This document shows, one piece after another, positions 7,707 to 57,953 of a DNA stretch of 64,000 nucleotides. The notes beneath the pieces were generated by a model that was given only the letters and a program-made list of their open reading frames with translations, was not told the origin of the DNA and made no database searches. Source of the DNA: Nitzschia sp. pyKryTriq1 (lineage: Eukaryota; Bacillariophyta; Bacillariophyceae; Bacillariales; Bacillariaceae); the NCBI GenBank assembly GCA_956465555.1, contig OY101115.1, forward strand, positions 4,316,120 to 4,380,119, in the 5' to 3' direction. The position numbers and the translations under genes were made by a program. The first letter of the stretch is position 1, and the number at the start of each line of letters is the position of its first letter.

Positions 7707-9255
7707 TTTGATTGACTTGTTCAAGAATGTACTCGGACGAATTGTGAGCCTAACAAAAAACGACTTACTTCTTCTTGGCGATTGCATGCTGCTGCGGAGG
7801 AGCTTTACGATAGTTTATTCTCCTTCCTTTGTTGGATACACACTCAAGTTACGGATGGAAAGATACGGGGCCGGTTTGAGGCAACGATAGGGGAACCCGG
7901 TTGCTCGCTCCAGAATGTCTCTCAGTACTAGGAACTCGTAGGTTTCCTACGGTGCGGCAGGAATGTGCTTGAAGATACCCACTCCGATCCCGAGCAGATG
8001 GCGTTTAGAATTTCGGTCGAATGAATCAATCACGCGTACGGTACTATGGTATGATTCGGTACGTTATACCGTACCGGTACTGTAAAAGTCCCGAGCGCGG
8101 GCGGGCGGGGAGTGGGAGGAGAGACAGCCCCCGGCGCCCGCAGTACACGTACACGTACAGTACCTGGTAGCAACCGTACTCGTACAGCACGATGTGCAGG
8201 TAGTATTACCAGTACACTTACAGTACCGTACGGTAATACGAGTACGCCGCCCACCCCGCCGCCGATAACAATTCTCGACTAGTATGAATGAAACCGTCAT
8301 GAATGAGCGAAACCGTCTGCACGTCGTTTTGTGTCGGTCCGTACTGTACCAGGTACTGTACACGTGTACGAACCTGTCGTGAATTGGATTCGCGATGTAC
8401 AGAAACAGTCCCAAATGGAGATCCAATCGGATGAGTCTGCGATTCAATCGGACGGTAGTCTTGGAAGCGACGTTCCAGCGGAAACTATTGTTTACTATAC
8501 ATGAAGAATGAACAATACAATCCAACGATTGTGATTCCCTAAACGGAGCGAAAGACTACCATAACAGGAAAGGATGTGGGATAGAGATATAGACAGTTGG
8601 GAGCGAATATTAGTATCTTCATCGCGGAAGATATGATTAATTGGATTCGGCAGTTCCAAGACTGACCGGCGAGAGCAAAGATCCAATTCCAACAAACGGA
8701 GTTATCAAAGGTAGAATAACATTGTTATAATCTCGAGTTTGAGACGAAAGTTTACTTTACTTTACTTTACTTGAGAGAGGTTCGTGCATCGGAAGATCAG
8801 ACGAACTACTAGCAATACTACACGACACGGGACTGAAGAAGTAGTCCCACGAGTCATCAGTCAGCTGACGAAGAACAGACTACGGAGATTTCAACACGAA
8901 CCGGTATCAAAAAACAGGTCGGTGGGAGCAAAAATTAATACCATATTCGTACTGTAAAGCAAGACGAGAACTGTGATTTGCCCGTTTCGTTGCAAAACTC
9001 GCACCAAAACTCAACTCTCAGACAAGGAGAGCCAAAGAGTCATAATGTGGTTCCTTTTTCATCAGAGTGCGGAGACATTATTGAGAGCTGGCGGCTTGCG
9101 TTCGACGACTTGGTTATTACCAACTATTGCTATTTGTTGGAAGCCTCTCGCCTCTTACTTGCAATCGATCGGTGAGCGTGTGTTAACAACCTCAATCAAT
9201 CAATCAGTCAATCAGTCAATCAATCAAATTAATCTATCAAAGGAAAATCCTAAAA
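7707..9255. other. Long divergent intergenic region (FCP / GPCR)
   Basis: About 1.5 kb between two divergent genes. It holds the GTAC tract at 8035-8246, a second short one at about 8338-8368, a G/C-rich patch near 8094-8140, a TTTAC microsatellite at about 8752-8772 and a CAATCAAT/CAGT repeat at about 9191-9228. No convincing exon was found, but a 5' exon of the GPCR gene could be hidden here. Confidence 0.6.
8035..8246. repeat. Self-complementary GTAC tract
   Basis: Words such as TACCGTACCGGTAC, ACGTACACGTAC, GTACTCGTAC and CAGTACCGTACGGTA fill this stretch, broken by a short G/C-rich core near 8094-8140. The tract lies in the promoter region of the FCP gene. Confidence 0.8.
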
Positions 9256-11994
9256 ATGAGCCAATACGGCTATGATTATTACGACCTCCTCCGCGAATCT
9301 TTCGCATCGAGCAGCAATTTTACAGTCATCCCCTTGGTAGACAAGGATCAGCACGAGACTGAAATCTCTGGCTATCATGTCGGTCGGAATTTACACTGGC
9401 TGCCAGAGACTGACGAAATTCTGTGCCATATTCCCATCATCTTCCGTTGGAGCCAGGACCAGGATGATATCTCCAGCGAGGCGTACGGGGGGTCTGCCGC
9501 TGCTCTCTTGGCGATAAATCATTTCAATACGGGCAATAGTAGTATTGTCAACGAGCTGGAAAATATTCAGGAGAGATGCCCGATACGATTTACAACCGAG
9601 TTGATTGACTCCCGGTCCAGTGGTTCCGTGGCCATGCAATCGTTGACGAGACTTTTGACCAGAAGATCAGACGACTTTGAATCTCCTCAGCCATGCTCCC
9701 TGATTGGATCGAGTTTGAGTTCGACGACAAGATTGCTGGCCACTGTGACTGGCGTATACGACCTACCCCACGTGACTTCTTCGGCGTCGAGTGTGGAATT
9801 GGACGATGAAATTGAATACCCTCTGTTTGCTCGGACACATCCCTCCGATGCCAGTATGGCCCAACTGAGTATCAACTATTTATCGACCCAGCTTGGCGTG
9901 GAATATGCTGCTGTCTTGTATGTTGACAATACATTTGGAAATTCATACAACTCGGAATTACTCAAACAGGCTTCACTCTACAACATGACTATTGTGTCGG
10001 AAGGATTCCGATCTGGAGCCACGGATGAGGAAGTCAGTGCAGCACTCGAGCGACTCAAGAAAAGTGGGTATCGCTACGTCTTGGGAGTTTTCTTTTCTGG
10101 TGACTATGAGCGCATCATGACTCGTGCTATGGAATTGGAGATTGCAGGGCCGGATACCTTTTGGATGTTCAATGGGGCACTAGCATCCATGTTTATCAAC
10201 GGTCATCTCAGTGTTGAAAAAGACTCTCCACTGGCACAGGCAACATTCGGAACTGCTATACTATCGGACGAGGGAGGCCTTCCAGGGTTAGATCTTTATC
10301 ATGATCGATTTTTGACGCAATGGAGGGGCATTGGGGGGAACAAGGAATTGCTAGATTACATAAATGCCAAGCAACCCAAGTCGAGCACTCTGTCATTTGA
10401 CCGGACAAGCAGTTACTTCGAGTGGCTAGCTCCAAGTCATATTTCGGCGTTTAGTTATGACGCTGTTGTCGGACTCGGGCTTTCCGCGTGCAAGACGTAT
10501 GAGGAAAACAAGCAGCTGAATCCGGACGCGGGAATATTTTCAGGGCAGCAGCATCATGCGGAGTTCGTTAAAACAAGATTTAACGGTGCCAGTGGGGATG
10601 TCATAATTGGACCCGACTCCTTTTCTCGAAAAGCGAACTCTACCTACCATGTTGTCAGTAACATTCTGCCTCGCAGTGGATTGCCATCGACTAGCGCCAC
10701 AAACGAGAATTTTCAAGGTCAGCCGTGGATAGTCTTTGATACCTCCACCCTATCATGGCAACGTTATGACGAAATCAATGAATTTATATACTCGGGCGGA
10801 TCCGCCGTGCCACCCCAACAGATTCCAGCAGCGCAGATGGATTATTTAGAAGTTTCTCCCGCTGTTCGAGGAGTTTGCTTGACACTAGGAGGTCTAGCAA
10901 TGTTCTTGTCGATTTGTTTCTATGCATACTGCTGCGTTGTCCAACGAAACCATCGGGTAATTCGAGCCGCTCAGCCGTTGTTTTTGGGCTTGATTTGCTT
11001 GGGCTCTCTGATCTTGGCATCGTCCATCATTCCAGCTTCATTTGATGATACGGTTGTATCCGCAAGAGGAGCCGACGTGGCCTGTGTGGCAAAATTCTGG
11101 CTCTTTCCCATGGGATTCTGCCTCATATTCTCAGCCCTTTTCAGCAAATTGTGGAGAATCAATAAATTGCTATCCAATGCCATTACCTTTCAACGCATCC
11201 AAGTCACTGCATTTGATGTGATGATTCCTTTGATTGTCCTAATGGGGTCCAACGTGTTGGTGTTGACGCTATGGACAATACTGGATCCGCCCTATCTGGA
11301 ACGCGAGGTACTGGAAACGGATCAGTACGGAAGGCCATCCGAAACAAGGGGCTTTTGTTACTCGGATAATCAAGAGTACTTTTTGTATCCACTGGTGGCC
11401 ATCAACGGTGTTGCCCTGATACTCGCTCTGTGGCAAGCGTGGATTGGACGTGGCATCACAACCGAGTTTAGTGAATCCAAGTTCGTTGCCATGGCAACCG
11501 TTTGCATCTTTCAAGCCATATTCATGGGAGTCCCAATCATGATTATCGCTGATGACGACTCGACAGCTTACTTGTTCGTGTACACGACGATTGTGTCAGT
11601 TATTTGCTTTTCCATCCTATTATTGATATTCGTCCCGAAGATAATGGCAATTCGCTCCAACGATCCTGCATCGGCTCCATCCGTGTCGATAACGAATTCC
11701 AGTATGAGGGTTGGTGGCAAGAAAGTCAAACTCGGCGGCTCTTCGTCATTCAACAACACCGACACTGGCAACAACAACATTGGGCGAGTCTCCATGTCCG
11801 GAGAAGTGCAGTCTTCACAAGGCTTTGTCATCCCAGAAATGAGTCGAGGACAAAGCAATAGTTCCGACAATAACTCGAGGGGGAGAGAATCAAAGGAATC
11901 ATCATCCCAAGGGCGCCTCTCCTCTGTCGTAGAGGAAAGTGGCGAGTTGTCTACTACAAAGGACACTGGGGCTCTGCAGGTAGCAAGTCAGTAG
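9256..11994 (+). CDS. Class C G-protein-coupled receptor, GABA-B-receptor-like
   Basis: A 912-residue protein. Residues about 60-470 form an extracellular periplasmic-binding-like (ANF/Venus flytrap) ligand domain, with SAAALLAINHFN near 77, PCSLIGSSLSSTTRLLA near 146 and YAAVLYVDNTFGNSY near 218. Residues about 535-800 hold seven hydrophobic segments of the 7tm_3 type, with RAAQPLFLGLICLGSLILASS in the second and a Cys-containing extracellular loop. The tail (800-912) is Ser/Asn-rich and probably cytoplasmic. The family couples ligand binding to G proteins; the ligand here is unknown. Odd: no signal peptide precedes the ligand domain. The frame is open upstream only to 9187 with no earlier ATG, so a 5' exon may be missing from this model. 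Confidence 0.9.
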   Translation: MSQYGYDYYDLLRESFASSSNFTVIPLVDKDQHETEISGYHVGRNLHWLPETDEILCHIPIIFRWSQDQDDISSEAYGGSAAALLAINHFNTGNSSIVNELENIQERCPIRFTTELIDSRSSGSVAMQSLTRLLTRRSDDFESPQPCSLIGSSLSSTTRLLATVTGVYDLPHVTSSASSVELDDEIEYPLFARTHPSDASMAQLSINYLSTQLGVEYAAVLYVDNTFGNSYNSELLKQASLYNMTIVSEGFRSGATDEEVSAALERLKKSGYRYVLGVFFSGDYERIMTRAMELEIAGPDTFWMFNGALASMFINGHLSVEKDSPLAQATFGTAILSDEGGLPGLDLYHDRFLTQWRGIGGNKELLDYINAKQPKSSTLSFDRTSSYFEWLAPSHISAFSYDAVVGLGLSACKTYEENKQLNPDAGIFSGQQHHAEFVKTRFNGASGDVIIGPDSFSRKANSTYHVVSNILPRSGLPSTSATNENFQGQPWIVFDTSTLSWQRYDEINEFIYSGGSAVPPQQIPAAQMDYLEVSPAVRGVCLTLGGLAMFLSICFYAYCCVVQRNHRVIRAAQPLFLGLICLGSLILASSIIPASFDDTVVSARGADVACVAKFWLFPMGFCLIFSALFSKLWRINKLLSNAITFQRIQVTAFDVMIPLIVLMGSNVLVLTLWTILDPPYLEREVLETDQYGRPSETRGFCYSDNQEYFLYPLVAINGVALILALWQAWIGRGITTEFSESKFVAMATVCIFQAIFMGVPIMIIADDDSTAYLFVYTTIVSVICFSILLLIFVPKIMAIRSNDPASAPSVSITNSSMRVGGKKVKLGGSSSFNNTDTGNNNIGRVSMSGEVQSSQGFVIPEMSRGQSNSSDNNSRGRESKESSSQGRLSSVVEESGELSTTKDTGALQVASQ

Positions 11995-14407: not shown

Positions 14408-15405
14408 TCATGAGCATGTACACTGGCAACCTTGTAACGATCCATCATTTTGGTAGTTGTTGAAAAACCCCGTAATCGTTTCCATCGACAAGGGTTCTGT
14501 CAGCCAAGGATCCGCACCGCAATTCGGTAATCGATCATCCCTCAAGGGAGTCGGTTCAATGATAAGTTCGTGTTCGGCCATGGGTGTTGGGGCAATCGTA
14601 TAATCAATTGGGAAGTTGTACCTCTGGCTGTCGAATAACGAGGAGCCATTGTATTGCGTCGTCACGCCGCCCTCCTCCTCGGTGCAAAATGCCTCAAACA
14701 AACCCTGCCATCCCGGTGCATCATCGCACATGATATCTGTGATCGGAACCAGAGATTTTAATGAAGAAGAACAGGGAGGAGCATTGGACTGTGTTGAGGG
14801 GGAATACTTGTTTTTTCGCATTGGAAAGTCGAGGGTTTGGGAGGTTCTTTCGAAGTGGGACAGGGGCTCTGCAATTGTTGGAAGTCGTCGTTGAGCCGCT
14901 GCCAGGACAAATGATTTAACTGGAAGCATGAATCTTTCAGGCGAACAATAGCGACTCATAGAATCGCAAAGTGATCTGTTTCCTCGGATAAAGTATGGGT
15001 GTGCCCAGCCTCCCTTGTATGGTCCTTTTAGGATGCGCACCCAGTGCCACATATTTCTGTATAGGAAGAACACGAGAGAAAAACATCAGAGAGAAAAACG
15101 TCACAAACAAACATCCAGAGTCAGAAACGAAAACGAAACGCAGTTTCTTCGCGAATCCAATGGACGTACAATTGGCGTTCAAATGATCGATACTTAGTTT
15201 GGCTAAGTCCAAAGCTAGGGAGAATCTTTAGAAGTCGATCGGGGTCATGCACCATGATCGCAGATCCATTTGGAACCCAACAGACAATATCGGACAGTCC
15301 CTTTTGCTCTGCGAAAGTGATGAGATCCCAGAGCTTTCCGGGGAATTGGTCAAGGGCAGAGCCTCGACCTGGAAGAGTTTTGTTTGTCTTCGGTTGCGAT
15401 CCCAT
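14408..15405 (-). CDS. Heat shock transcription factor (HSF), paralog A
   Basis: Two exons, complement(14408..15056, 15170..15405), encode 294 residues. The HSF DNA-binding domain spans about residues 20-115: FPGKLWDLITFAEQKGLSDI, then VPNGSAIMVHDPDRL, then LSQTKYRSFERQLNMWHW, then GGWAHPYFIRGN. The 113-bp intron splits the codon for Leu in RQLNMW; its donor is GTACGT and its acceptor ACAG, and removal restores the exact motif seen in paralog B. HSFs bind nGAAn repeats; diatoms have a greatly expanded HSF family. The C-terminal half is divergent, without a clear HR-A/B heptad repeat, and ends in a Cys-rich GCQCTC tail. Confidence 0.9.
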
Positions 15406-16323: not shown

Positions 16324-17079
16324 CTAGAAAATGGCGTCGAATGCCTCGGCGGACAGTGGCTCCAACAATTGATTCATGCCAGCATGTTCCGGTATCGGGG
16401 TGGGTTCGTACATTTGTCCCGATTGAGGAAACGATAACGGGTCGAAAGGTTCTTCAATGAAATGCAACAACTGTCTTTCAAGGAGACTTGAATCTTCATC
16501 ACAGGTAGTTGTAGGAAGGGGCTCCCAGTCATCCTCGGCAACCTTCATTGGCGTTGAGCGAAGCTTGCAAGTATTCAGTGGTTCCATGCTGGGAACAATG
16601 TCATTATTTATTCTGATCAAAGGGAAGTCGATCTTTTCACTCTCCTTGATTGGAGTAGCGCTCATGTTGGTAGTAGTTTGCATCACATTCGGAGAATTCA
16701 TAAGGACCTGAAGAATGGATAATTTTGGAATACCATGTCGGCTCATGAAACTACAAAGGACTTTGTTCCCTCGGATAAAGTACGGGTGGATCCACCCTCC
16801 CTTGAAGGGTCCGTCGAGAATGCGCTCCCAGTGCCACATGTTTAGCTGCCGTTGAAACGAGCGATACTTCGTTTGGCTGAATCCGAAATGCGGAAGGATT
16901 TGCAACAGTTTTTCAGGATCGTGTACCAAGATCGCTCTTCCATTCTGAACCCAAGAAATAACATTGTCAAGTCCCTCCCGTTCGGTAAAGGTCATGAGAT
17001 CATGAAGCTTTCCTGGAAACTGAGCGCTTGCCGCTCCGCGGGCAGGGTTTTGGAGTCCGTTTCTCGGTGCTGAGCCCAT
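16324..17079 (-). CDS. Heat shock transcription factor (HSF), paralog B
   Basis: A single-exon 251-residue HSF, same strand and about 0.9 kb upstream of paralog A. The DNA-binding domain (about 20-115) reads FPGKLHDLMTFTEREGLDNV, VQNGRAILVHDPEKLLQILP, SQTKYRSFQRQLNMWHW and GGWIHPYFIRGN. At the position where paralog A has an intron (within RQLNMW) the coding sequence here is continuous. Outside the DNA-binding domain the two share short words: MSR near 120 and, at the C terminus, PTPxxEH and EPLSxE. This supports a tandem duplication. Nuclear transcription factor; targets cannot be inferred. Confidence 0.92.
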   Translation of the reverse strand: MGSAPRNGLQNPARGAASAQFPGKLHDLMTFTEREGLDNVISWVQNGRAILVHDPEKLLQILPHFGFSQTKYRSFQRQLNMWHWERILDGPFKGGWIHPYFIRGNKVLCSFMSRHGIPKLSILQVLMNSPNVMQTTTNMSATPIKESEKIDFPLIRINNDIVPSMEPLNTCKLRSTPMKVAEDDWEPLPTTTCDEDSSLLERQLLHFIEEPFDPLSFPQSGQMYEPTPIPEHAGMNQLLEPLSAEAFDAIF

Positions 17080-17975
17080 TGTGTCTGTGATGATTGAAGC
17101 TGGTTGGCAGTTGTTGACTGATAATCGATTGTCGGTATTTGGTCGACGAGTGTCACGGTATGTGGATATTGTGAGATGTGATCTGATGAGATGCTTTGCT
17201 TTGAGTTTTTTTTTGTGAGCTCGTCACTGACGATCTGCGATTTTTCTTCTTCATGCGCTGGCGGCAGCCGCCACCCAGGTTACCAAAATAGCCTCATATC
17301 GTGGTAGGGAACTCTTCCTCGGAACAATTTCAATACCGCAAAGATCATCTGTCTTATATACGCAACTCTTTCGTATAAATACTACCACTCTCGGCGCGGT
17401 GGAACTTGAAACGGCACACTGTGCCAAGACGTTATGGATCCCTTTAAAAATACTAATTGCCTGGTGAGTAGATGTCCGATAACAGCTTTTAGGTCCTCCG
17501 CAACTCCGCGTTATCGGTAGCGCTTCGTCTCTGCGTTCGGTCCGAGCGAGTGAGAACGCCAGCGTGGCGGCGGGTGGCGGTGTGCAAGTACACGTACCAG
17601 TACCGGTTGTTCAACCAGTTATCCTTTGTTCAACTGTTCTCTTGTTGTTCGGAGTGCAGTTTTACAGTAGTCCGTGTGCCAGCGTGGTGCATGTTCTCTA
17701 CCACACCGGTCACCGCGTACAACCTGTATTGTAAGGCCGAAAAGGAATCGGGAATCTGGAATTTTGTGACGAGGGGCGGACGAGAGGGCACGAAGAAAAA
17801 AAGAATGATGCCAACAATAAGCGAAGCCCGCAAAAGCGAAAGGTGAAGGAGAGAAAGGAGAAGGATCAACGGAGCGACGATGGCGAGAGCCTCTTTCCCG
17901 GCCCTTTGGGCGTGGACCTTTAGACTACACTACATGATCTTGTACTGGTACACTACGAGTACCCTTGCTTTGAAG
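17080..17975. other. Divergent promoter region (HSF-B / pyruvate carrier)
   Basis: About 900 bp between divergent genes, with a GTACACGTACCAGTACCGG word near 17586-17604 and an inverted GCTGGCGGCAGCCGCC patch near 17260. No gene seen. Confidence 0.55.
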
Positions 17976-19035
17976 ATGCTCGTGTTCTCAATCGCCTCGT
18001 CATCGCGAGCAATCTCCAGCTCATCGCTGCGAATATCCAAGTCGGCAATTAGACGACGATGGCAATCGTCGACTCCTCCTCCAACGACCAAGGAGGTCGA
18101 GAATGGGGTTTCCAGCAAGAAATCGTTCTGGACAAACGCCGAGGTATGACTTGCGATTGCGGCTTTCCTCTTATAGAGGACTCACTCCTTGACTGGCGGA
18201 CTCATTCACTCCTGACGAGCCTCACCTTTTCCGTGTCTTTGCTCGACTAGACTTGGGGCTTCATGTCCGCAATGGCAGGATGGACAATGTCTATAGCTGC
18301 AATTTCAGACGCGGTCAGTAAAGGACCCGAAGTGATTTCCTTGCCCATGACATCCGTCCTTGTTCTTTATTCTTCGCTTTTTCTGAGGTGGTCGTTCGCG
18401 GTGAAACCACAGAATTTGTTCCTGTACGTAGTAAGCACATTGATTGTTCGTATAGTTTGATAGAAACCGACAAGCTTCAGGCATCAGGGTACACTCACGT
18501 TTGCCATCCCATGAAACATAGAGGCGCTTGTCACTTTACAAATATCTGTGCACAACTCAACCAAGGGCGGCGGGCAATCGAATACAAACTGGAGAACAAT
18601 CTGCGCAATGAAGTCGATGATACAGCTCAGAAGGTTGGGGTGGTAGTCGCTGTCATGGGAGGAGCCATTCTTGGAGGGCCAGTTGTTCAAGCAGCATTGA
18701 TTCGACAAAATCTTGGAAGAGTGTCGGCTATCGCTGCCGCCGATGCGGGACCGTTTACGATACATTTTTGGGCCCCAATGTCAAAATGGTTGCTCAGTGG
18801 CGCGTCACTCTTGGATTACAAACGGCCCACCGATAAAATTTCCATTTCTCAGTACTCATCTCTGACACTCTGTGGTCTTATACATTCATGGTACGCACTT
18901 CTCGTCACTCCAGTCAATTACATGTTATGTAGCGTCAATGTGGCGCTACTGCTGAGCAGTGGCTGGCATCTGGGTCGTAAAATCCATGCGGACTACTTCA
19001 AGAATGAAAAGATTGAAGATACAAACGCTGATTAG
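17976..19035 (+). CDS. Fused mitochondrial pyruvate carrier: MPC1-like plus MPC2-like domains in one chain
   Basis: Three exons, join(17976..18143, 18251..18423, 18522..19035), encode 284 residues. Introns are GTATGA...CTAG and GTACGT...ATAG. Residues 1-35 are Ser/Arg-rich and fit a mitochondrial presequence. Residues about 49-135 match MPC1: WGFMSAMAGW, EVISLPMTSVLVLYS, FLRWSFAVKPQNLFL, then GACHFTNICAQLNQG across the second splice junction. Residues about 192-275 match MPC2: IHFWAPMSKWLL, DYKRPTDKISISQY, LVTPVNYMLCSVN and SGWHLGRK. Between them lies a hydrophobic segment (about 152-174, VGVVVAVMGGAILGGPVV). MPC1 and MPC2 normally form a heterodimer that imports pyruvate across the inner membrane; here both would be one polypeptide. 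An earlier ATG at 17880 would precede the presequence with unrelated residues. Confidence 0.82.
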
Positions 19036-19603: not shown

Positions 19604-20637
19604 ACTCCTGTGGGATGGGCTTCAACATCTAGTCCTTCAGCCCCAGGATAGCCCTACGGAACTTGTGGAACGCAGCTCCTTGTAGAGGCTTAGTAAAAAA
19701 ATCAGCAGTCATTTCAGTGGTGGGACAGTACTCCACAGTCACGTCCCCATTGGCGATCCTATCCGCCACGAAGTAGTACCTGATATCGATGTGTCGGGTT
19801 CTCTTACTGCTTGATGCCAGCCCGTTCTTTTCCAGTAGCATGGCGCTCTGGTTGTCTTGATACACTGTGCTTGGGCCAACGTCATACCCTTGCTCCAGCA
19901 TGAAGTTTTTAGTCCAAATGACTTGTCCGAGCACATCGTCAACGCCCACTAGTTCAGCTTCAGTGGAACTCTTGGTGTTCAACTTTTGTCGAATCGAGGT
20001 TGAGTATGCCGAACCCGTACCTAGAGACATCGTACCACCTGTGTGGCTTTTCATATCGTGGTGCACTGCAAAGGCTCCATCTATCCACCATTTGATGATC
20101 AAGGCTTTGTTAGCTGATAGTCTCAGTACTAAATCGAGCGACCCATCCAAATATCTCATTGTACGTGACAGCTTCTTCCAATCATCTTCGTCTGGTTCCT
20201 TCACCCGAGTGCTTAGATACGCAACTGCTGTCTGGATATCGGGTCTCCCACGTTTGCAGAGGAATAGTAGCTTCGCAGTTATGTGGTGGTACTGGTTTCC
20301 CATTTCGGTGGGTAGCTTCGGGCAGTCCTTGTTCACGGTGAAAAGGTGGTTCCCAGCTGGGGTGGCTGAATTGCCGCGCATACAATCGGGGGCCTCGTCG
20401 AGCATCTTGGTGATGTAGTCCCTCATGTCGATCGATACGAAACCGTCTTCGGTGTAGTCAATAACCATTCCGAGGTAAGGATGTCTCTTCCCGAATGTGA
20501 CTTGTATTGGAGCTTCCTTCCCATATACGTCATTGAGTTTCTTCAGTAAGCCTTTGACCACACTCAGTTCCATGTGCGAGATCTTCAAGTCATCCACGTG
20601 CCAAAGGACAGTAATTTGCTTTCCGTTCACCACTTTG

Positions 20638-20904
20638 TGGAATCCAATAAAGATACCCACTTGATTGTTGCAATAGTCCACTGCGATCTGATATTTCATG
20701 CAAATCGGATTATTAAATTTTTATGTTCCTATCCGATGATATCTTCCTTGTTTCACGTTTCACTTGTTTCTTCTCCAAATAATGGTTGGTCGATAGACAA
20801 TATCTTTCTTTCTTACGTTGATGTCTCATACCACCATAGATCATATGTATGTATACTGCCTTCATACCTTGGTATGGTCGGTGTCCGACCAGTTTACTCA
20901 ACAC
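20638..20904 (-). repeat. Direct repeat at the proximal end of the copia element
   Basis: 267 bp, same sequence and orientation as 19337-19603. It runs directly into the reverse-transcriptase part of the element. Confidence 0.85.
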
Positions 20905-48535: not shown

Positions 48536-51500
48536 TTAATATGCAGGCCGGACTGCCGGTGATTTCGTAGAAAGATCCACTCTCATTCCAAGCACAGCTG
48601 CAAGACTGCCAGGAGAGGGCTGACTGATGGTTGTTGTTGTTGTTGTTGTTGTTGTTGATGCTCCTCGTGATGCTGGCGAGTGGCTCGATTGCTTACTTTG
48701 ACGACTGCCACCGGAGCTTGTGATTATCGCTTCGAACAGATTTTTCTTTTTATTGCTGCTGGATGTAGGTGGTTGAACAGCTGCCTTTGAGAACACAGTC
48801 TTGAATAGATTCTTCCGAGGCATCGATGCTGGTTCGGCATTAATAGTCAGGATTGATTGAGTCATAGGGGAAGAATAAGTATTCATACGGATGCCCAGAG
48901 CCGCAGGAGCAGTATGGAGATGAGCTGTATCGAATAGATTCTTCGTGGGTCGAACCGCCGTCTCGGTTTGGCGTACCGGCGGAGCTTGCCTGTTCGGGTC
49001 GATCGTCATACCCAAAGCAGCAGCAAGGCTACCAGTTTGAGGTTGATGCTCGTTTTGGCGTACCGACGGAGCCCGTTTATTCGTGTCGATCGACATCCCC
49101 AACGCAGCAGCAAGGCTACCAGATTGCGGCTGGCAGGTTGTTAGACGATCAACGGAGGCGTTTTTGATCGGGGAACAGAACACGTCGGCGGCCCGACTGC
49201 CTGACTGAGCCTTAATTCTAGGGAGTTCTTCTTCGTCTTCTTCGCTGTCATCGTCACTTGATTCGGAGCTGCTTTCACTCGCGGAGTCTGATCCTTCACC
49301 TGCCACCTTGGCAGCTGCTACTTGCCTCACTGGAGGCGCACGCGACGACGGATCGATGGAAAGTCCTAATGCCTCGGCCAGACTACCAGCTTGAGGCTCG
49401 AATCGGGCCACATTGCCTCTTTCGATACCTTTGGACGCTTCTCTGCGGTTGGACTTCCCCCCTCGACTCGTGACAAACTGTTGCTGAGTTACGGTGTCAA
49501 GTCCGAGTGCATCTTCGGGCGAGCCGCCGTAGTGAATAGTCGGTCCTTGTGCCGAGCGGCCTATGTTAAGTCCAAGAGCCTCATCAAGGCTACCGGATTG
49601 CGGGTATGATTGGAGCCTTCCTTCAACGGGCAAGGAATGCACATCTTCTCTCAACTCGCGCTTTTCAGCTCTCGGAGGAGTTTGAAGCGAAGACACGACA
49701 TGGCTGACCATTGGAACGACATAACCCACGATTGGAACACGGGAGGATATTTCAACCACCAAACCAAAACCGGAAGCCAAGATGCCACGATCAGGCTGGG
49801 GGTCTGCCGTCTTGACTGATCGTATTGCTTGATCGACCTTCATCGGAGGTGCGTCGTGTCCAGTTTGTCGAATAGCCGCAGCCCGCGAAGACGGATCAAT
49901 CACAATGCCAAGAGCTTCCGCTAAGCTTCCAGGCTGGGGTTTGAAGCGTGGGGCATGATCTTCCTCGTCGCTGCTGCTGCAGTCATCTGATCCAGAGTCC
50001 GAATCCGAGTAAGAGTGCTCATCTGATAGTGTCTTCATAGGAGGCGCATCGTGTCCATTCTGCCGAATAGCGGCCGCTCGCGACGACGGATCAATCGCCA
50101 TACCAAGAGCTTCGGCCAAGCTTCCGGCCTGGGGTAGAAAACGGGGCCTTTGTTCTTCCTCATCGCTGTCGCTAGCATCTGATCCAGAGTCCGAATCCGA
50201 GTCAGAGTGCTCATCCGATAGATTTTTCATTGGAGGTGCATCATGTCCATTCTGCCGAATAGCTGCAGCTCGCGAAGACGGATCAATCGCCATACCAAGA
50301 GCTTCGGCCAAGCTTCCGGCCTGGGGTTGAAAACGGGGTCGTTCTACTTCCTTATAAATCTCACTGTCATCGGATCCAGAGTCAGAGTCAAAGTCAGAGT
50401 CACAATCGGAGTGCTCATCTGACAATGTTCTCATTGGAGGTGCATTGTTTCCAGTCTGTCGAATAGCGGCAGCCTTTAAAGTTGGATCAATAGCCATACC
50501 AAGAGCTTCGGCCAAGCTTCCGACCTGGGGTAGAAACCGTGGTCCTTGATCTTCCTCGTCGCTTCCGCTGTCGTCCGAGACGGAGTCGGATTCAGAGATA
50601 TCATCAGATAATTTCTTTGTCTGAGGCAAATCACGCCCCATCTGCCGGATTGCGGGAGCACGAGAGCTTGGATCGACCGCCATACCCAAAGCTGCAGCCA
50701 AGCTTCCGACTTGTGGTTGGAATTTTGGCGTTTCATTGGAAGTTCGAATGGGCGGTACAGGCTGACCAATATCACGAGGTTGGCGGATCGGGGGCGCGCG
50801 AGAGCTTGGATCAACCACCATGCCCAAAGCTGCAGCCAAGCTTCCGACTTGTGGTTGGAATTTTGGCGTTTCATTGGAAGTTCGAATGGGCGGTACAGGC
50901 TGACCAATATCACGAGGTTGGCGGATCGGGGGCGCGCGAGAGCTTGGATCAACCACCATGCCCAAAGCCGCAGCCAAGCTTCCGGCCTGCGGTTGGAATT
51001 TTGGCGTTTCATTGAAAGTTCGAATGGGCGGTACAGGCTGACCAATATCACGAGGTTGGCGAATCGGGGGCGCGCGAGAGCTTGGATCAACCACCATGCC
51101 CAAAGCTGCAGCCAAGCTTCCGACTTGTGGTTGGAATTTTGGCGTTTCATTGGAAGTTCGAATGGGCGGTACAGGCTGACCAATATCCCCTGTTTGGCGG
51201 ATCGGGGGCGCGCGAGAGCTTGGGTCAACCACCATGCCCAAAGCCGCAGCCAAGCTTCCGGCCTGCGGTTGGAATTTTGGCGTTTCATTGGAAGTTTGAA
51301 TTGGCGGTACAGGCTGAGTTTGGCGGATCGGGCGCGCGCGAGAGCTTGGATCAACCACCATGCCCAAAGCCGCAGCCAAGCTTCCGACTTGTGGTTGGAA
51401 TTTTGGCGTTTCATTGGAAGTTCGAATAGGCTGTGCTAGCTGACCAATATCACGAGTTTGTCGGACAGCAGGCGCACGTGAACTGGGATCGACCACCATT

Positions 51501-54500
51501 CCAAGTGCTTCTGCTAAGCTCCCAGGTTGAGCTTGAAAGCGAGTTTCTCGGTCCTCGTCTTCGCTATCGTTCTCACCCGAGGATGATTCGGAGGAGTCGC
51601 TATCAGATCGTGTCTTCGGTCCATTGTTTCCAACTTGTCGAATGGCCGGTGCTGTCCGCGATGGATCAACCCTCATTCCAAGAATAGCTGCAAGACTACC
51701 CGGTTGTGGCATAGAAGGCGCGTGCTTATTGGTATTGGATGGCATTCTGGACGTAGCTATAGCCATTGGGATTATCGCATCAGGTGGCGATTGGTTGGCT
51801 CGAATGGGCGGGGCTTTTGATGACGAGTCAATGCTCATTCCAAGCGCAAATGCCAGACTTCCAGGCTGAGGTTGATTGACCGCTTCAGAGAAACCAGTTG
51901 GCATGGCCCTGGGGGTGGAATTCGCCACAACGGCATCCAACAGACTCTTCTTTCCACTGCTCGGGGTATCAGTCTGCTGACGCACAGCTGGGGCACGCCT
52001 GTCCGAGTCGACTGACATTCCCAGTGCTGCTGCAAGGCTACCAGCTTGGGCTTGGTTTGGCGTCTTCTGGATGGACGACTTTGCCGCACTGGAAAACACG
52101 GTCTCGAACATATTCTTCTTCGCAACTTGCGGCGAATGGTTGGCTCGAATGGGCGGGGCTTTTGATGACGAGTCAACGCTCATTCCAAGCGCAAATGCCA
52201 GACTTCCAGGCTGAGGTTGATTGACCGCTTCAGAGAAACCAGTTGGCATGGCCCTGGGGGTGGAATTCGCCACAACGGCATCCAACAGACTCTTCTTTCC
52301 ACTGCTCGGGGTATCAGTCTGCTGACGCACAGCTGGGGCACGCCTGTCCGAGTCGACTGACATTCCCAGTGCTGCTGCAAGGCTACCAGCTTGGGCTTGG
52401 TTTGGCGTCTTCTGGATGGACGACTTTGCCGCACTGGAAAACACGGTCTCGAACATATTCTTCTTCGCAACATGCGGCGATTGGTTGGCTCGAATGGGCG
52501 GGGCTTTTGATGATGAGTCAACGCTCATTCCAAGCGCAAATGCCAGACTTCCAGGCTGAGGTTGATTGAGCGCTTCAGAGAAACCAGTTGGCATGGCCCT
52601 GGGGGTGGAATTCGCCACAACGGCATCCAACAGACTCTTCTTTCCACTGCTCGGGGTATCAGTCTGCTGACGCACAGCTGGGGCACGCCTGTCCGAGTCG
52701 ACTGACATTCCCAGTGCTGCTGCAAGGCTACCAGCTTGGGCTTGGTTTGGCGTCTTCTGGATGGACGACTTTGCCGCACTGGAAAACACGGTCTCGAACA
52801 TATTCTTCTTCGCAACATGCGGCGATTGGTTGGCTCGAATGGGCGGGGCTTTTGATGATGAGTCAACGCTCATTCCAAGCGCAAATGCCAGACTTCCAGG
52901 CTGAGGTTGATTGAGCGCTTCAGAGAAACCAGTTGGCATGGCCCTGGGGGTGGAATTCGCCACAACGGCATCCAACAGACTCTTCTTTCCACTGCTCGGG
53001 GTATCAGTCTGCTGACGCACAGCTGGGGCACGCCTGTCTGAGTCGACTGACATTCCCAGTGCTGCTGCAAGGCTACCAGCTTGGGCTTGGTTTGGCGTCT
53101 TCTGGATGGACGACTTTGCCGCATTGGAAAACACGGTCTCGAACATATTCTTCTTCGCAACATGCGGCGATTGGTTGGCTCGAATGGGCGGGGCTTTTGA
53201 TGACGAGTCAACGCTCATTCCAAGCGCAAATGCCAGACTTCCAGGCTGAGGTTGATTGACCGCTTCAGAGAAACCAGTTGGCATGGCCCTGGGGGTGGAA
53301 TTCGCCACAACGGCATCCAACAGACTCTTCTTTCCACTGCTCGGGGTATCAGTCTGCTGACGCACAGCTGGGGCACGCCTGTCCGAGTCGACTGACATTC
53401 CCAGTGCTGCTGCAAGGCTACCAGCTTGGGCTTGGTTTGGCGTCTTCTGGATGGACGACTTTGCCGCACTGGAAAACACGGTCTCGAACATATTCTTCTT
53501 CGCAACATGCGGCGATTGGTTGGCTCGAATGGGCGGGGCTTTTGATGACGAGTCAACGCTCATTCCAAGCGCAAATGCCAGACTTCCAGGCTGAGGTGCA
53601 TCATTGAGATCGGAAAAGTTAGTCAGTTTTGTTTTTGGGTTAACATTATTCACCATGGCATCCAACAGACTCTTCTTTCCATGATTTGGGGTTTCTGCTT
53701 GCAGGCGAACTGGGTGAGCATGTTTGTTGGCGTCCACCGACATTCCCAGTGCTGCTGCAAGGCTACCTGCCTGGGCATGATGAGCTGTTTGGGACCTAGG
53801 AGCCTCTTCTACAGTTTGACGGACTGTGGGAGCATGTTTGTTAGAGTCCACCGACATTCCCAAAGCTGCTGCGAGGCTACCAGCCTCGGCCTGATGATAT
53901 GTCTGTTGGCTTGATGATTTTGCTGCGCTTGCAAACACGGTCTCGAACATGTTTTGCTTTGGTAATAATGGTGACTGGCTGGCTCGGATAGGAGGAGCAT
54001 GCGATGTCGGGTCGACAGCCATACCAAGGGCTGCAGCCAAGCTTCCAACCTGTGGCTGGGCAGTGTTATCGATACGCTGTTCCCCTGCTTGGTAGATGCC
54101 ACTATTAGGTACTGCTGATGGCGTAGCCCTCTGGACCCTCTTTTCATCTTGCTTGACTCCAAAGAAGGAAGCAGGTAGACCAAGTGTATCTGCAAGATAT
54201 TCCATCTGGGCAGTCTCGTCAGCCGGGGCTTCTGCTCTAGTGGACATTTTCCCGTCTCGCTGTTTGTCAGGCTTAATACCAGTTTTGACTCCCATGATCT
54301 TGGCAAGGTTGGACTCATCGACGCCAAGCTCCTTATTTGCGGACTTGATAGCCTTGGCCTTGATGCGTTCAAGTCGTGACATCGCCCTTTCTTTGTCTGC
54401 CCGTTTCTCTTCTTTGGTCACGGGTTGTGGTTTGAAGGTACGTTCTCGAACTGGAGCTGCCGAAGATGAGGGATCAATCGACATTCCAAGAGCTGAGGCC

Positions 54501-56443
54501 AAGGAATGATGTTTCGGCGCGATTGAGGGAGCAACATTGTCTTCTTCCATTTCTTCTCCTTCTGATTCCGTCTCATTGTCTTCGACCTTGACATTCTTGA
54601 TGACTTCCTGGAATAGCTTCCTGGAACCCGTGGAGCAAACGGATCCAGCACTTGATGGGATCGGTTCAGCTCCTGCCGGTTTAGACTTGGGTGATGGCGT
54701 TGTATTGACTCCGAAAAAAGATGCGGGTAGGCCAAGAGTTTCTGCAAGATATTGCATCTGAGCGGCTTCGTCGATTGATGGTTCCATGTTGGAGGCTTGT
54801 GCCTTGCTGTTTTTAACCAGGGGGTTTCCTGATTTACCAGCTGAATTCACACCCATAAGATTCGCCAGTCTGGACTCATCGACGCCAAGCTCCTTGTTGG
54901 CAGATTTGATAGCCTTGGCTTTGATACGTTCAAGTCGCGTCATCGCTCTTTCTTTATCTGCTCGCTTTTCTTCCTTCGTCATCGGCTGAGGCTTGAAGGT
55001 TCGAATTGGAGGCGCTTTAGGACTAGGATCGACCATCATTCCAAGGGCGGAAGCCAAGGAACTTGGTTGTGGGGCAACGGAAGAGGATTCGCTTTCCCCC
55101 TCGCTTTCCGCCCCAGCAGATTCTGTCTCGTCCTTATCTTCAACCCGCACTTTTTTCATGGCTTCCTCGAACAGTGACCTGCTGCTGGGGGAGGAAGCGT
55201 GGGAACCAACACTTGGACGCTTCTCTTGATTCGCTGCAGTAGGCTTGGGGGGTGTCGCCTTGACGCCAAACATGGATGGCGGCAAACCAAGCGACTCGGC
55301 TAGATACGTCATCTGCGCTTCCTCGTTCCTTCCATTAACAGCTATTTGCATTGCTTGATTCTTCTGTGGCATGCCCTCGGCTGGAGTGGTAGGCTCCGAA
55401 GCATTTCGCATCCCCATGACCGACGAAAGGTTTCCTCCATCCATTCCAAATTCTTTCGTCGCCGACTTGATCGCCTTGGCCTTGATTCGCTCCAGTCGAT
55501 TCATCGCCTTTTCTTTCTCAGCCATCTTGGCCGCCCAGGTGGGATCGACCGGCGGTAGTGGTGCGGTCTCGGGGGTCCTCTCGGCGGGGGCGACCTTGGA
55601 GGATCGACGCTTGGAGGATGATTTGCCCGACGACTTTTTCCCTGGCTCCCGGCGACTCGGTTTATTCTTTTGTCGGGAAGAAGAAGAGCTCGAGTGTCGA
55701 GAGACTGACAAGGAGGATCGACGCTGAGATATTCCTCCCCCCCCTCCTCCTGATGACTTGCTCGATTTCGAAGATTTCTCTGCGAAGAAAGACGCGGGAA
55801 GCCCGAGTGTTTGAGCCAACATTTGAATGTCTTCGTCTTGACCATCATAATCCGCACCAGCAACATCTGCGGACTTGCTCCTACGAACCCCTCGTTGCCT
55901 CTCACGGTTATTTCTATTCTTATTCCCGGCTGCACCTGATGATGATGGCGGCTTACCTGCAGACATAGACATGACGGCCCGAGCCTTGATCTCTTCCATC
56001 CGCGAGAGCGATTCTTCTTTTCGTCCCGACGAGGAGGTCATCTTGTTGCTTTTTCGACCCCTTTCTACCTCGTATGGATTCTTGTTCATCTCGTACGTAT
56101 AGAAGCGAGACTGCTCTCCTGGCCGGTCAATACTGGAGTGATCAGATGTGATTTCAGCAGTAGTCGGCGTATCATCGGTCGCCCGGCCCTTTCCATAGGG
56201 GGGCGTTTGTTGATGTTGTTGTTGCATCATCATCATGCCGGGTAGCATGTCTTCTTCGATGGAACTGACGCCAGAAAGGTCACCGCTACTAGTAGAATGA
56301 CCACTCGGATCGGTGAAGGAGGGAGTGCTGTCGTTGCGGTTGGCAGAGTTTAAACCGCCCCCCATACCGGCACCACCCTGCATCATCTTCATGCGGTCTC
56401 CCAGGGATAAACCTGGCGCTGCTCTCCCAGCATAGAACGCCAT
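48536..56443 (-). CDS. Giant 2635-residue repeat protein built on a GSLAxALGM motif
   Basis: One uninterrupted frame of 7.9 kb. I count about 33 copies of a roughly 24-residue motif, QxGSLAxALGMxVDxxxxAPxxR, from near residue 455 to the C terminus. The N-terminal part (about 130-830) instead carries four copies of RLERIKAKAIKSAxKE and four of LAxTLGLPASFFG, in alternation. Between motifs lie disordered spacers, some strongly acidic (SDSDSGSDDSEI-like, 1930-2160). Residues about 945-1531 are five near-identical 115-residue blocks, and 1664-1914 are 46-residue blocks. There is no signal peptide, membrane segment or enzyme motif. It may be a scaffold with many equivalent peptide docking sites. 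The first ATG of the frame is used. Confidence 0.8.
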   Translation of the reverse strand: MAFYAGRAAPGLSLGDRMKMMQGGAGMGGGLNSANRNDSTPSFTDPSGHSTSSGDLSGVSSIEEDMLPGMMMMQQQHQQTPPYGKGRATDDTPTTAEITSDHSSIDRPGEQSRFYTYEMNKNPYEVERGRKSNKMTSSSGRKEESLSRMEEIKARAVMSMSAGKPPSSSGAAGNKNRNNRERQRGVRRSKSADVAGADYDGQDEDIQMLAQTLGLPASFFAEKSSKSSKSSGGGGGGISQRRSSLSVSRHSSSSSSRQKNKPSRREPGKKSSGKSSSKRRSSKVAPAERTPETAPLPPVDPTWAAKMAEKEKAMNRLERIKAKAIKSATKEFGMDGGNLSSVMGMRNASEPTTPAEGMPQKNQAMQIAVNGRNEEAQMTYLAESLGLPPSMFGVKATPPKPTAANQEKRPSVGSHASSPSSRSLFEEAMKKVRVEDKDETESAGAESEGESESSSVAPQPSSLASALGMMVDPSPKAPPIRTFKPQPMTKEEKRADKERAMTRLERIKAKAIKSANKELGVDESRLANLMGVNSAGKSGNPLVKNSKAQASNMEPSIDEAAQMQYLAETLGLPASFFGVNTTPSPKSKPAGAEPIPSSAGSVCSTGSRKLFQEVIKNVKVEDNETESEGEEMEEDNVAPSIAPKHHSLASALGMSIDPSSSAAPVRERTFKPQPVTKEEKRADKERAMSRLERIKAKAIKSANKELGVDESNLAKIMGVKTGIKPDKQRDGKMSTRAEAPADETAQMEYLADTLGLPASFFGVKQDEKRVQRATPSAVPNSGIYQAGEQRIDNTAQPQVGSLAAALGMAVDPTSHAPPIRASQSPLLPKQNMFETVFASAAKSSSQQTYHQAEAGSLAAALGMSVDSNKHAPTVRQTVEEAPRSQTAHHAQAGSLAAALGMSVDANKHAHPVRLQAETPNHGKKSLLDAMVNNVNPKTKLTNFSDLNDAPQPGSLAFALGMSVDSSSKAPPIRANQSPHVAKKNMFETVFSSAAKSSIQKTPNQAQAGSLAAALGMSVDSDRRAPAVRQQTDTPSSGKKSLLDAVVANSTPRAMPTGFSEAVNQPQPGSLAFALGMSVDSSSKAPPIRANQSPHVAKKNMFETVFSNAAKSSIQKTPNQAQAGSLAAALGMSVDSDRRAPAVRQQTDTPSSGKKSLLDAVVANSTPRAMPTGFSEALNQPQPGSLAFALGMSVDSSSKAPPIRANQSPHVAKKNMFETVFSSAAKSSIQKTPNQAQAGSLAAALGMSVDSDRRAPAVRQQTDTPSSGKKSLLDAVVANSTPRAMPTGFSEALNQPQPGSLAFALGMSVDSSSKAPPIRANQSPHVAKKNMFETVFSSAAKSSIQKTPNQAQAGSLAAALGMSVDSDRRAPAVRQQTDTPSSGKKSLLDAVVANSTPRAMPTGFSEAVNQPQPGSLAFALGMSVDSSSKAPPIRANHSPQVAKKNMFETVFSSAAKSSIQKTPNQAQAGSLAAALGMSVDSDRRAPAVRQQTDTPSSGKKSLLDAVVANSTPRAMPTGFSEAVNQPQPGSLAFALGMSIDSSSKAPPIRANQSPPDAIIPMAIATSRMPSNTNKHAPSMPQPGSLAAILGMRVDPSRTAPAIRQVGNNGPKTRSDSDSSESSSGENDSEDEDRETRFQAQPGSLAEALGMVVDPSSRAPAVRQTRDIGQLAQPIRTSNETPKFQPQVGSLAAALGMVVDPSSRARPIRQTQPVPPIQTSNETPKFQPQAGSLAAALGMVVDPSSRAPPIRQTGDIGQPVPPIRTSNETPKFQPQVGSLAAALGMVVDPSSRAPPIRQPRDIGQPVPPIRTFNETPKFQPQAGSLAAALGMVVDPSSRAPPIRQPRDIGQPVPPIRTSNETPKFQPQVGSLAAALGMVVDPSSRAPPIRQPRDIGQPVPPIRTSNETPKFQPQVGSLAAALGMAVDPSSRAPAIRQMGRDLPQTKKLSDDISESDSVSDDSGSDEEDQGPRFLPQVGSLAEALGMAIDPTLKAAAIRQTGNNAPPMRTLSDEHSDCDSDFDSDSGSDDSEIYKEVERPRFQPQAGSLAEALGMAIDPSSRAAAIRQNGHDAPPMKNLSDEHSDSDSDSGSDASDSDEEEQRPRFLPQAGSLAEALGMAIDPSSRAAAIRQNGHDAPPMKTLSDEHSYSDSDSGSDDCSSSDEEDHAPRFKPQPGSLAEALGIVIDPSSRAAAIRQTGHDAPPMKVDQAIRSVKTADPQPDRGILASGFGLVVEISSRVPIVGYVVPMVSHVVSSLQTPPRAEKRELREDVHSLPVEGRLQSYPQSGSLDEALGLNIGRSAQGPTIHYGGSPEDALGLDTVTQQQFVTSRGGKSNRREASKGIERGNVARFEPQAGSLAEALGLSIDPSSRAPPVRQVAAAKVAGEGSDSASESSSESSDDDSEEDEEELPRIKAQSGSRAADVFCSPIKNASVDRLTTCQPQSGSLAAALGMSIDTNKRAPSVRQNEHQPQTGSLAAALGMTIDPNRQAPPVRQTETAVRPTKNLFDTAHLHTAPAALGIRMNTYSSPMTQSILTINAEPASMPRKNLFKTVFSKAAVQPPTSSSNKKKNLFEAIITSSGGSRQSKQSSHSPASRGASTTTTTTTTTISQPSPGSLAAVLGMRVDLSTKSPAVRPAY
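50700..51420. repeat. 138-bp coding tandem repeat (46 residues per unit)
   Basis: About five units inside the giant repeat gene. The AGCTTCCGACTTGTGGTTGG word recurs at about 50701 and 50838, and variants continue at 138-bp steps; one unit is shortened (near 51310). Confidence 0.85.
51843..53607. repeat. 345-bp coding tandem repeat (115 residues per unit), five copies
   Basis: Near-identical 345-bp units with anchors (GCAAATGCCAGACTTCCAGG) at about 51847, 52192, 52537, 52882, 53227 and 53572. Differences between units are a handful of single bases, such as CCGAG/CTGAG and GATTGACC/GATTGAGC. The period is a multiple of three, so the frame is kept. Confidence 0.95.
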
Positions 56444-57953
56444 CGTCTTGGATTGTTCTAGTTTTTAGAAGAGAAAATAGGTTGATGCCTTGTTTGTGTC
56501 ATGGCAGGTACATTGAAAAGGGCGCGCCTCGGTCTCGACGATTTTGATTTCGGGGTCCGATTTCGGATCGGCGATCGACGCGACGGATGCACGTTCCTTG
56601 CCTTTTATTGATGCGCCGTTGATGCTCAACGTCCGAGACGAAATAAAAGATCCGTCCCTCAACGCTCCACACTCCGATATTATAGCCCGATAATGACCGG
56701 AACAGATAGGTGGGAAGATCCGGTGTCATGGGCTATAATAATTTCAAAGAAGATCGAATTTCATTGGCAGAAAGACGTCTCACTCTGCATACGTCAGAGA
56801 CTTTTAGAGATGGTTTGGGCCTTTTTACACCCAAGCACGCATGCAGACTGATGGAATCATCATCATTGGAACACCTTCTTCGACATCGGCTACCGGTATG
56901 CTGTGGACAAGCGGCGCTCGCTATTGTACCTGTAGGTCTACCGTACATACTGTACCGGCACATCGGATGCTTTTGATTGCCTCGAATAAATAATGATTCG
57001 TCATCGTCCTTCTACTAACTGTACCTGTATCTTGACAAAGGAGGTAATAATAAATACGATGTACCTGCTGCTGAACAGCTTCAATAATGACTCCACTAAG
57101 TATTATTTATAGTACTACTACTTGTTGTAGTACCAGTACTCGTACCAGTACCGGTACTACTCGTATGTGCCGGTAGGTGAATTCAGCCTCGCTTCCTCAC
57201 CACCACGGTTCGCGGGATGAAGGCATGAGGCATCTCATGGATCACCACCCAGTATATATCCAGAATGACCGGGGAAATCTTGTTGTCCATCATGCATGAT
57301 CGTCATCGATCATCTACCATTTCCGTCTTTCTTCTTCATCCCTCCTCCCTACTACTCGTACTATGCCTTCCCCCCACCAGTGTGCGTCATCCTCACTTTG
57401 AACGAGGAGGTAGCTTTCTATTCTGTAACAATACTCTCAAAATTTAATCAACTGAATTGCTAGTATAGAGTAGCCAGGGCATCATTGTTTCCTTTTGCGG
57501 CTGAGAGATGCTGCTACTCACTTTCTTGGTCGTCAAAACAGCTGTTTGACTGGGTCATTTGGTCCAGGGTGCTGGTGATGGTGTGTTCTGGATCCTCGTT
57601 TTCTTAGTTTTTCTTCAGTCACCGCCACGACGACTAGTACTATGGCTTCAGACTTTGGCAAATCCTTGCGGAACCGCCAACACATTAGTCTATCTAATAC
57701 ACTACTCTCTCTCTCTCTCTCTCTAGCAGAGACTACCTAATAACAACCTACCGGTACCTGGTGCAGTAACAGTCTACCCGCCTACTGGAAACATGTTCTC
57801 GAGACTGATACTTCTTTGGAGGAAGAGGGAGAAGGAGACAAACTTAGTAGTAAATCTCTATCGACGCTTCGGTAGCGACGACGAGCCTTCCGACTTAACT
57901 TGAAGCGATTGAAATAATTCCTCCGATGATGACGTACATTGTATGCTGTTTCA
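56444..57953. other. Intergenic upstream of the giant repeat gene
   Basis: About 1.5 kb. It has GTAC words at about 57125-57168 (CCAGTACCGGTACTAC), a CT microsatellite at about 57706-57724 and no convincing exon. Confidence 0.55.

What the first reader, a model, noticed from the sequence alone, without database searches (positions are those of the whole stretch)
17976..19035. Single-chain mitochondrial pyruvate carrier: MPC1 - linker helix - MPC2
The spliced gene reads as an MPC1-like domain (through NLFLGACHFTN across intron 2), a segment of about 23 hydrophobic residues (152-174), then an MPC2-like domain (IHFWAPMSKW, TPVNYMLCSVN). MPC normally works as a heterodimer of separate MPC1 and MPC2, each a three-helix protein related in fold to SemiSWEET. 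Joining two parallel three-helix units needs an odd number of linking helices, and exactly one is visible. This is the 3+1+3 design by which SWEET sugar transporters are built from two SemiSWEET halves. A fixed 1:1 carrier would need no subunit assembly and would prevent homodimers. I know of no described natural fusion of this kind.
Basis: partly seen in the sequence, partly recalled or inferred. Interest (0 to 1): 0.88.

Follow-up and report, generated by a model that had tools for sequence, protein, structure and literature searches.

The report
Fused pyruvate carrier in an alga
One gene, probably from a diatom, joins the two halves of the mitochondrial pyruvate carrier into a single protein; the join is real in the sequence, but this kind of fusion has already been reported in diatoms.

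Summary
The three-exon gene at 17976-19035 (+) encodes 284 residues with two Pfam MPC matches. Half 1 is MPC1-like: 61.2 bits to MPC1 against 15.4 to the best MPC2 chain. Half 2 is MPC2-like: 52.0 against 22.7. The join lies inside one uninterrupted exon (18522-19035); no in-frame GT-AG intron of 40 nt or more fits within the linker. The 23-residue uncharged stretch 152-174 may be a seventh membrane helix, but only hydropathy says so, with mixed results; the one structure prediction run was uninformative (pLDDT 40).

The novelty claim fails. Traller et al. 2016 report a fused single gene for MPC1 and MPC2 in Cyclotella cryptica and other diatoms (PMC5124317). Medrano-Soto et al. 2020 describe 7-helix MPC proteins in 3+1+3 arrangement, one with an MPC1-like and an MPC2-like half (PMC7176098).

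Of 12 human cavity residues, 7 are kept, including the essential His and Lys; W82 is His and F71 is Trp. The passages I read do not mention such changes; I ran no search for them.

Verdict: real, of a known kind, function untested.

The parts
17976..18143 (+). Exon 1: N-terminal Ser/Arg-rich stretch that looks by eye like a mitochondrial presequence (start codon uncertain; in-frame ATGs at 17880 and 17934 too)
   Evidence: presequence reading by eye, no predictor run
18144..18250 (+). Intron 1, GT-AG, 107 nt
18251..18423 (+). Exon 2: helices 1 and 2 of the MPC1-like half
18424..18521 (+). Intron 2, GT-AG, 98 nt
18522..19035 (+). Exon 3: helix 3 of the MPC1-like half, linker, whole MPC2-like half, stop
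18634..18702 (+). Linker residues 152-174, 23 residues without charge, candidate seventh membrane helix
   Evidence: no in-frame GT-AG intron of 40 nt or more with both ends in 18589-18759
18742..19020 (+). MPC2-like half, residues 188-280
   Evidence: stretch 185-280; 188-256

Best explanation
This is a natural single-chain mitochondrial pyruvate carrier: an MPC1 unit and an MPC2 unit joined by one linking helix (3+1+3) in the mitochondrial inner membrane. Shown by sequence: one open frame with two MPC domains, each half closer to its own MPC type, and 7 of 12 human cavity residues kept, among them the two essential ones. Inferred: the linker runs from matrix to intermembrane space so that both halves sit parallel; the halves form one central cavity and move pyruvate with a proton by alternating access, using His118 (human MPC1L H86) and Lys202 (human MPC2 K49). 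It most likely arose by fusion of an existing MPC1 gene and an existing MPC2 gene, not by recent duplication of one of them.
For: Two PF03650 stretches, 161.6 bits for the whole chain and 76.6 and 90.0 for the halves, cut-off 27. Half 1 to MPC1: 61.2 bits, 36 of 78 aligned identical; half 2 to MPC2: 52.0 bits, 30 of 68 identical. BLASTP finds no match between the two halves. The join is inside one exon; no in-frame GT-AG intron of 40 nt or more has both ends in 18589-18759, and the linker region scores best as coding in this frame of the six (0.341 bits per codon; next 0.164). Residues 152-174 carry no K, R, D or E and hold the highest Kyte-Doolittle 19-mer of the protein (1.90). The His, Lys, Asn, Tyr and Phe equivalent to H86, K49, N100, Y64 and F68 are kept (against PMC12007569). 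Published precedents.
Against: On the Wimley-White octanol scale no 19-mer of the linker is favourable (best +0.26; +1.40 at the Kyte-Doolittle peak), and 1806 of 20000 shuffles of the 52-residue linker region reach its hydropathy peak. The scales also miss accepted MPC helices here (helix 3 of half 1: best Kyte-Doolittle 0.42, octanol +1.64), so hydropathy is a poor judge either way. AlphaFold on exon 3 alone gave pLDDT 40 and no helix at the linker, which is uninformative. 5 of 12 cavity residues differ (S35, L38, F71, T78, W82), and so do the residues linked to H1 bending: MPC1L G31, P32, G37 and MPC2 G51, G56 (roles). Exon 1 scores higher as coding in two other frames. No transcript, protein or transport data.
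Confidence: 0.8

Rival explanations
1. Two proteins are made from this locus: the chain is cut, or translation starts again before the MPC2 half (for example at the Met in VAVMGGAILGG), so an ordinary heterodimer forms.
For: An in-frame Met lies inside the linker and is followed by two Arg and no acidic residue before residue 188 (sequence).
Against: The frame is continuous, without a stop or an in-frame intron within the linker, and the linker codons score as coding. Published fused MPC genes or proteins share the arrangement, though those reports are also predictions.
Confidence: 0.07
2. It is a single chain, but the linker is a surface or re-entrant segment in place of the MPC2 N-terminal amphipathic helix, not a membrane-spanning helix.
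For: Rich in Gly, unfavourable on the octanol scale. Arg39 of the human MPC2 helix-turn-helix network is Phe here (network in PMC12007569).
Against: 23 uncharged residues. Parallel three-helix protomers with their ends on opposite sides need an odd number of crossings (topology from PMC12007569).
Confidence: 0.12
3. The protein is a single-chain member of the family but not an importer of pyruvate: it exports pyruvate from mitochondria or carries another small acid, because diatom mitochondria are thought to run the lower half of glycolysis themselves.
For: Traller et al. suggest export in diatoms (PMC5124317). 5 of 12 cavity residues are altered.
Against: The equivalents of H86 and K49, essential for pyruvate binding in human MPC, are kept. 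Nothing in the sequence shows direction.
Confidence: 0.15

Closest known systems
Fused MPC1/MPC2 gene of Cyclotella cryptica (g13004.t1) and other diatoms (Traller et al. 2016, PMC5124317)
   Same: One gene holding both MPC1 and MPC2, in diatoms (section read)
7-TMS MPC proteins such as C5K6B0, TC 2.A.105.1.8 (Medrano-Soto et al. 2020, PMC7176098)
   Same: MPC1-like TMS 1-3, one central TMS, MPC2-like TMS 5-7 (section read)
   Different: The authors prefer duplication of a 4-TMS precursor and leave fusion open; here the halves fit fusion better. The organism of C5K6B0 is Perkinsus marinus by recall, not stated in the passage
MPC1/MPC2 and MPC1L/MPC2 heterodimers (PDB 8yw6, 9mnw, 9giv; human by recall and PMC12007569)
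   Same: Same family; 36 of 78 (MPC1), 31 of 74 (MPC1L) and 30 of 68 (MPC2) aligned residues identical; essential His and Lys kept
   Different: Two separate chains there; 5 of 12 cavity residues differ here
SWEET sugar transporters
   Same: Two three-helix bundles joined by one helix; same Pfam clan as MPC (CL0141, PMC7176098)
   Different: Different Pfam family; the Pfam scan at E up to 1 lists MPC only

Membership tests
Mitochondrial pyruvate carrier (PF03650) | Match above the Pfam gathering score | tested here: met
   161.6 bits, cut-off 27; two stretches
Mitochondrial pyruvate carrier (PF03650) | Binding-site His of MPC1 and Lys of MPC2 | tested here: met
   His118 and Lys202 (residues from PMC12007569)
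Mitochondrial pyruvate carrier (PF03650) | The 12 cavity residues of human MPC1L/MPC2 | tested here: inconclusive
   7 of 12 kept (Y64, F68, L82, H86; K49, L96, N100); 5 changed (S35, L38, F71; T78, W82)
Mitochondrial pyruvate carrier (PF03650) | pH-driven pyruvate transport across the inner membrane | not testable with these tools
   needs an assay
Fused single-chain MPC1-MPC2 | Both types in one open frame, MPC1 first | tested here: met
   (genomic sequence, no cDNA)
Fused single-chain MPC1-MPC2 | One membrane helix between the halves (3+1+3) | tested here: inconclusive
   hydropathy mixed; structure prediction uninformative
SWEET (PF03083) | Match to the SWEET profile | tested here: not met
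   Pfam scan at E up to 1 lists only PF03650

The most novel reading that the evidence does not exclude
A single-chain MPC whose cavity was remodelled: the large aromatic residue moved from the MPC2 side (W82 to His) to the MPC1 side (F71 to Trp), giving changed inhibitor sensitivity and perhaps pyruvate export, suited to mitochondria that run the lower half of glycolysis.
Probability: 0.15. Interest if true: 0.5.

Novelty: already known. Interest (0 to 1): 0.25.

Why it matters
A natural single-chain MPC would fix the 1:1 make-up and the parallel arrangement of the two halves, and could be a convenient protein for structure and transport work. The two reports of fused MPCs that I read (one section each) are short bioinformatic notes. 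I saw no functional study of a fused MPC in the listings (20 of 95 papers listed; 4 of 4; 12 of 12; 25 of 64; 0 found; 15 of 401; 15 of 752; 4 of 4; 4 of 5). That library holds only open-licence PMC papers, so one may exist.

Tried and rejected
Whole-genome search for separate MPC1 and MPC2 genes: no genome is held. In the 64 kb window, tblastn with the two halves found no other MPC-like place (best other matches E 1.4 for half 1 and 0.18 for half 2). Relatives in viral contigs and genome contigs with the exon 3 protein: 9 and 43 pattern matches, none confirmed. AlphaFold on exon 3 alone, one sequence: mean pLDDT 40.0, pTM 0.24, so no fold search was run. NCBIfam: two matches at E 0.06, far below their cut-offs. 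Recent duplication of one half was rejected: no BLASTP match between the halves, and each is far closer to its own type. An intron with both ends within the linker was rejected; introns that begin before it or end beyond it were not enumerated.

The coding score is not uniformly favourable. Exon 1 scores 0.066 in the gene's frame and higher in two others (0.187 and, on the other strand, 0.338). Exon 2, exon 3 and the MPC2 half score best in the gene's frame (0.142, 0.138, 0.017).

Full report
Gene. Three exons, 17976-18143, 18251-18423 and 18522-19035 on the + strand, join into 284 codons and a stop. Of 88 open GT-AG combinations found within the ranges searched, two keep NLFLGACHFTN, and only one of these also keeps helix 1. 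The introns are 107 and 98 nt. The start codon is open: in-frame ATGs lie at 17880, 17934 and 17976. The first has A at -3 and G at +4; the last has A at -3 and gives an N-terminus that looks by eye like a mitochondrial presequence. No targeting predictor was available.

Domains. Pfam MPC (PF03650) matches in two stretches of the whole protein (161.6 bits; cut-off 27); the halves alone score 76.6 and 90.0 bits. Against chains of solved structures, half 1 scores 61.2 bits with MPC1 and 15.4 with the best MPC2 chain. Half 2 scores 52.0 bits with MPC2 and 22.7 with MPC1. The full chain shows the same order: MPC1 at 56-138, MPC2 at 188-256. Identities are 36 of 78 aligned to MPC1, 31 of 74 to MPC1L and 30 of 68 to MPC2. 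BLASTP finds no match between the two halves. This fits a fusion of two old genes better than a recent duplication.

Join. Exon 3 alone runs from the last helix of the MPC1 half through the linker to the end of the MPC2 half, so no splicing is needed to join the halves. No in-frame GT-AG intron of 40 nt or more has both ends in 18589-18759. The linker region's codon score is the best of six frames (0.341; next 0.164). Exon 2, exon 3 and the MPC2 half also score best in the gene's frame (0.142, 0.138, 0.017); exon 1 does not (0.066, with 0.187 and 0.338 in two other frames).

Linker. Residues 152-174 are 23 residues without any K, R, D or E, and hold the highest Kyte-Doolittle 19-mer of the protein (1.90). 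On the Wimley-White octanol scale the linker is unfavourable throughout (best +0.26, and +1.40 at the Kyte-Doolittle peak), and 1806 of 20000 shuffles of the 52-residue linker region reach its peak. The same measures also do poorly on accepted MPC helices here: helix 3 of half 1 reaches only 0.42 and +1.64, and helix 1 of half 2 only 0.59 and -0.24. AlphaFold on exon 3 alone was uninformative (pLDDT 40). One membrane helix is therefore likely but not shown. Topology favours it: in human MPC both protomers have three parallel membrane helices, N-termini in the intermembrane space and C-termini in the matrix (PMC12007569, passages, section). The same paper notes that older work proposed two helices for MPC1 and another orientation. 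Linking the end of one three-helix unit to the start of the next needs one crossing.

Cavity. PMC12007569 (section) names 12 cavity residues. Kept: MPC1L Y64, F68, L82, H86 and MPC2 K49, L96, N100 (7 of 12). Changed: MPC1L S35 to Gly66, L38 to Met69, F71 to Trp103; MPC2 T78 to Cys231 and W82 to His235. Also kept are the salt-bridge pair E51 and K66 and the cis-prolines P77 and P91 (roles). Also changed are residues tied to bending of helix 1 (MPC1L G31, P32, G37; MPC2 G51, G56; roles) and MPC2 R39 of the helix-turn-helix network. H86 and K49 are essential for pyruvate binding, and W82 stacks on inhibitors and lies with F68 around pyruvate. The chain should therefore bind pyruvate, perhaps with different inhibitor sensitivity. 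This is inference.

Literature. Traller et al. 2016 (PMC5124317, one section read in full) write that C. cryptica and other diatoms appear to have a fused single gene containing both MPC1 and MPC2, and suggest that it may export pyruvate. Medrano-Soto et al. 2020 (PMC7176098, one section read in full, and passages) describe several 7-TMS MPC proteins in 3+1+3 arrangement, with C5K6B0 having an MPC1-like and an MPC2-like half. A review cites that paper for 3+1+3 (PMC7407832, passages). Passages of PMC10909473 and PMC7699257 gave nothing on natural fusions.

Organism. Pfam finds a chlorophyll-binding protein and an HSF-type gene in the window, which fits a diatom by recall; the species was not established. 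Separate MPC genes elsewhere could not be sought; none other was found in the window.

Verdict. Interest is low to moderate. The altered cavity residues are the one point not mentioned in the passages I read; I ran no search for them.

Noticed in passing
window 18389-18391 and 18883-18885: Cavity residues that are Phe71 in MPC1L and Trp82 in MPC2 are Trp103 and His235 here; possibly a compensating swap (positions).
   Followed up: partly
window 17880-17976: Three in-frame ATGs; the upstream two would add a hydrophobic N-terminus before the presequence-like stretch, which could change targeting.
   Followed up: no
window 19629-20720 (-): Open frame about 600 bases downstream that reads by eye like the end of a copia-type retrotransposon polyprotein; no Pfam match at E 0.001.
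   Followed up: no
window 16324-17223 and 14408-15085 (-): HSF-type DNA-binding gene next to the MPC gene (PF00447), and a second frame that resembles part of it by eye though Pfam lists nothing at E 0.001.
   Followed up: no
window 9187-11994 (+): A 935-residue frame with a receptor ligand-binding region and a class C 7tm_3 domain (PF01094, PF00003), of interest in an alga.
   Followed up: no
window 48536-56464 (-): A 2642-residue open frame with many copies of a motif like GSLAAALGM; nature unknown.
   Followed up: no
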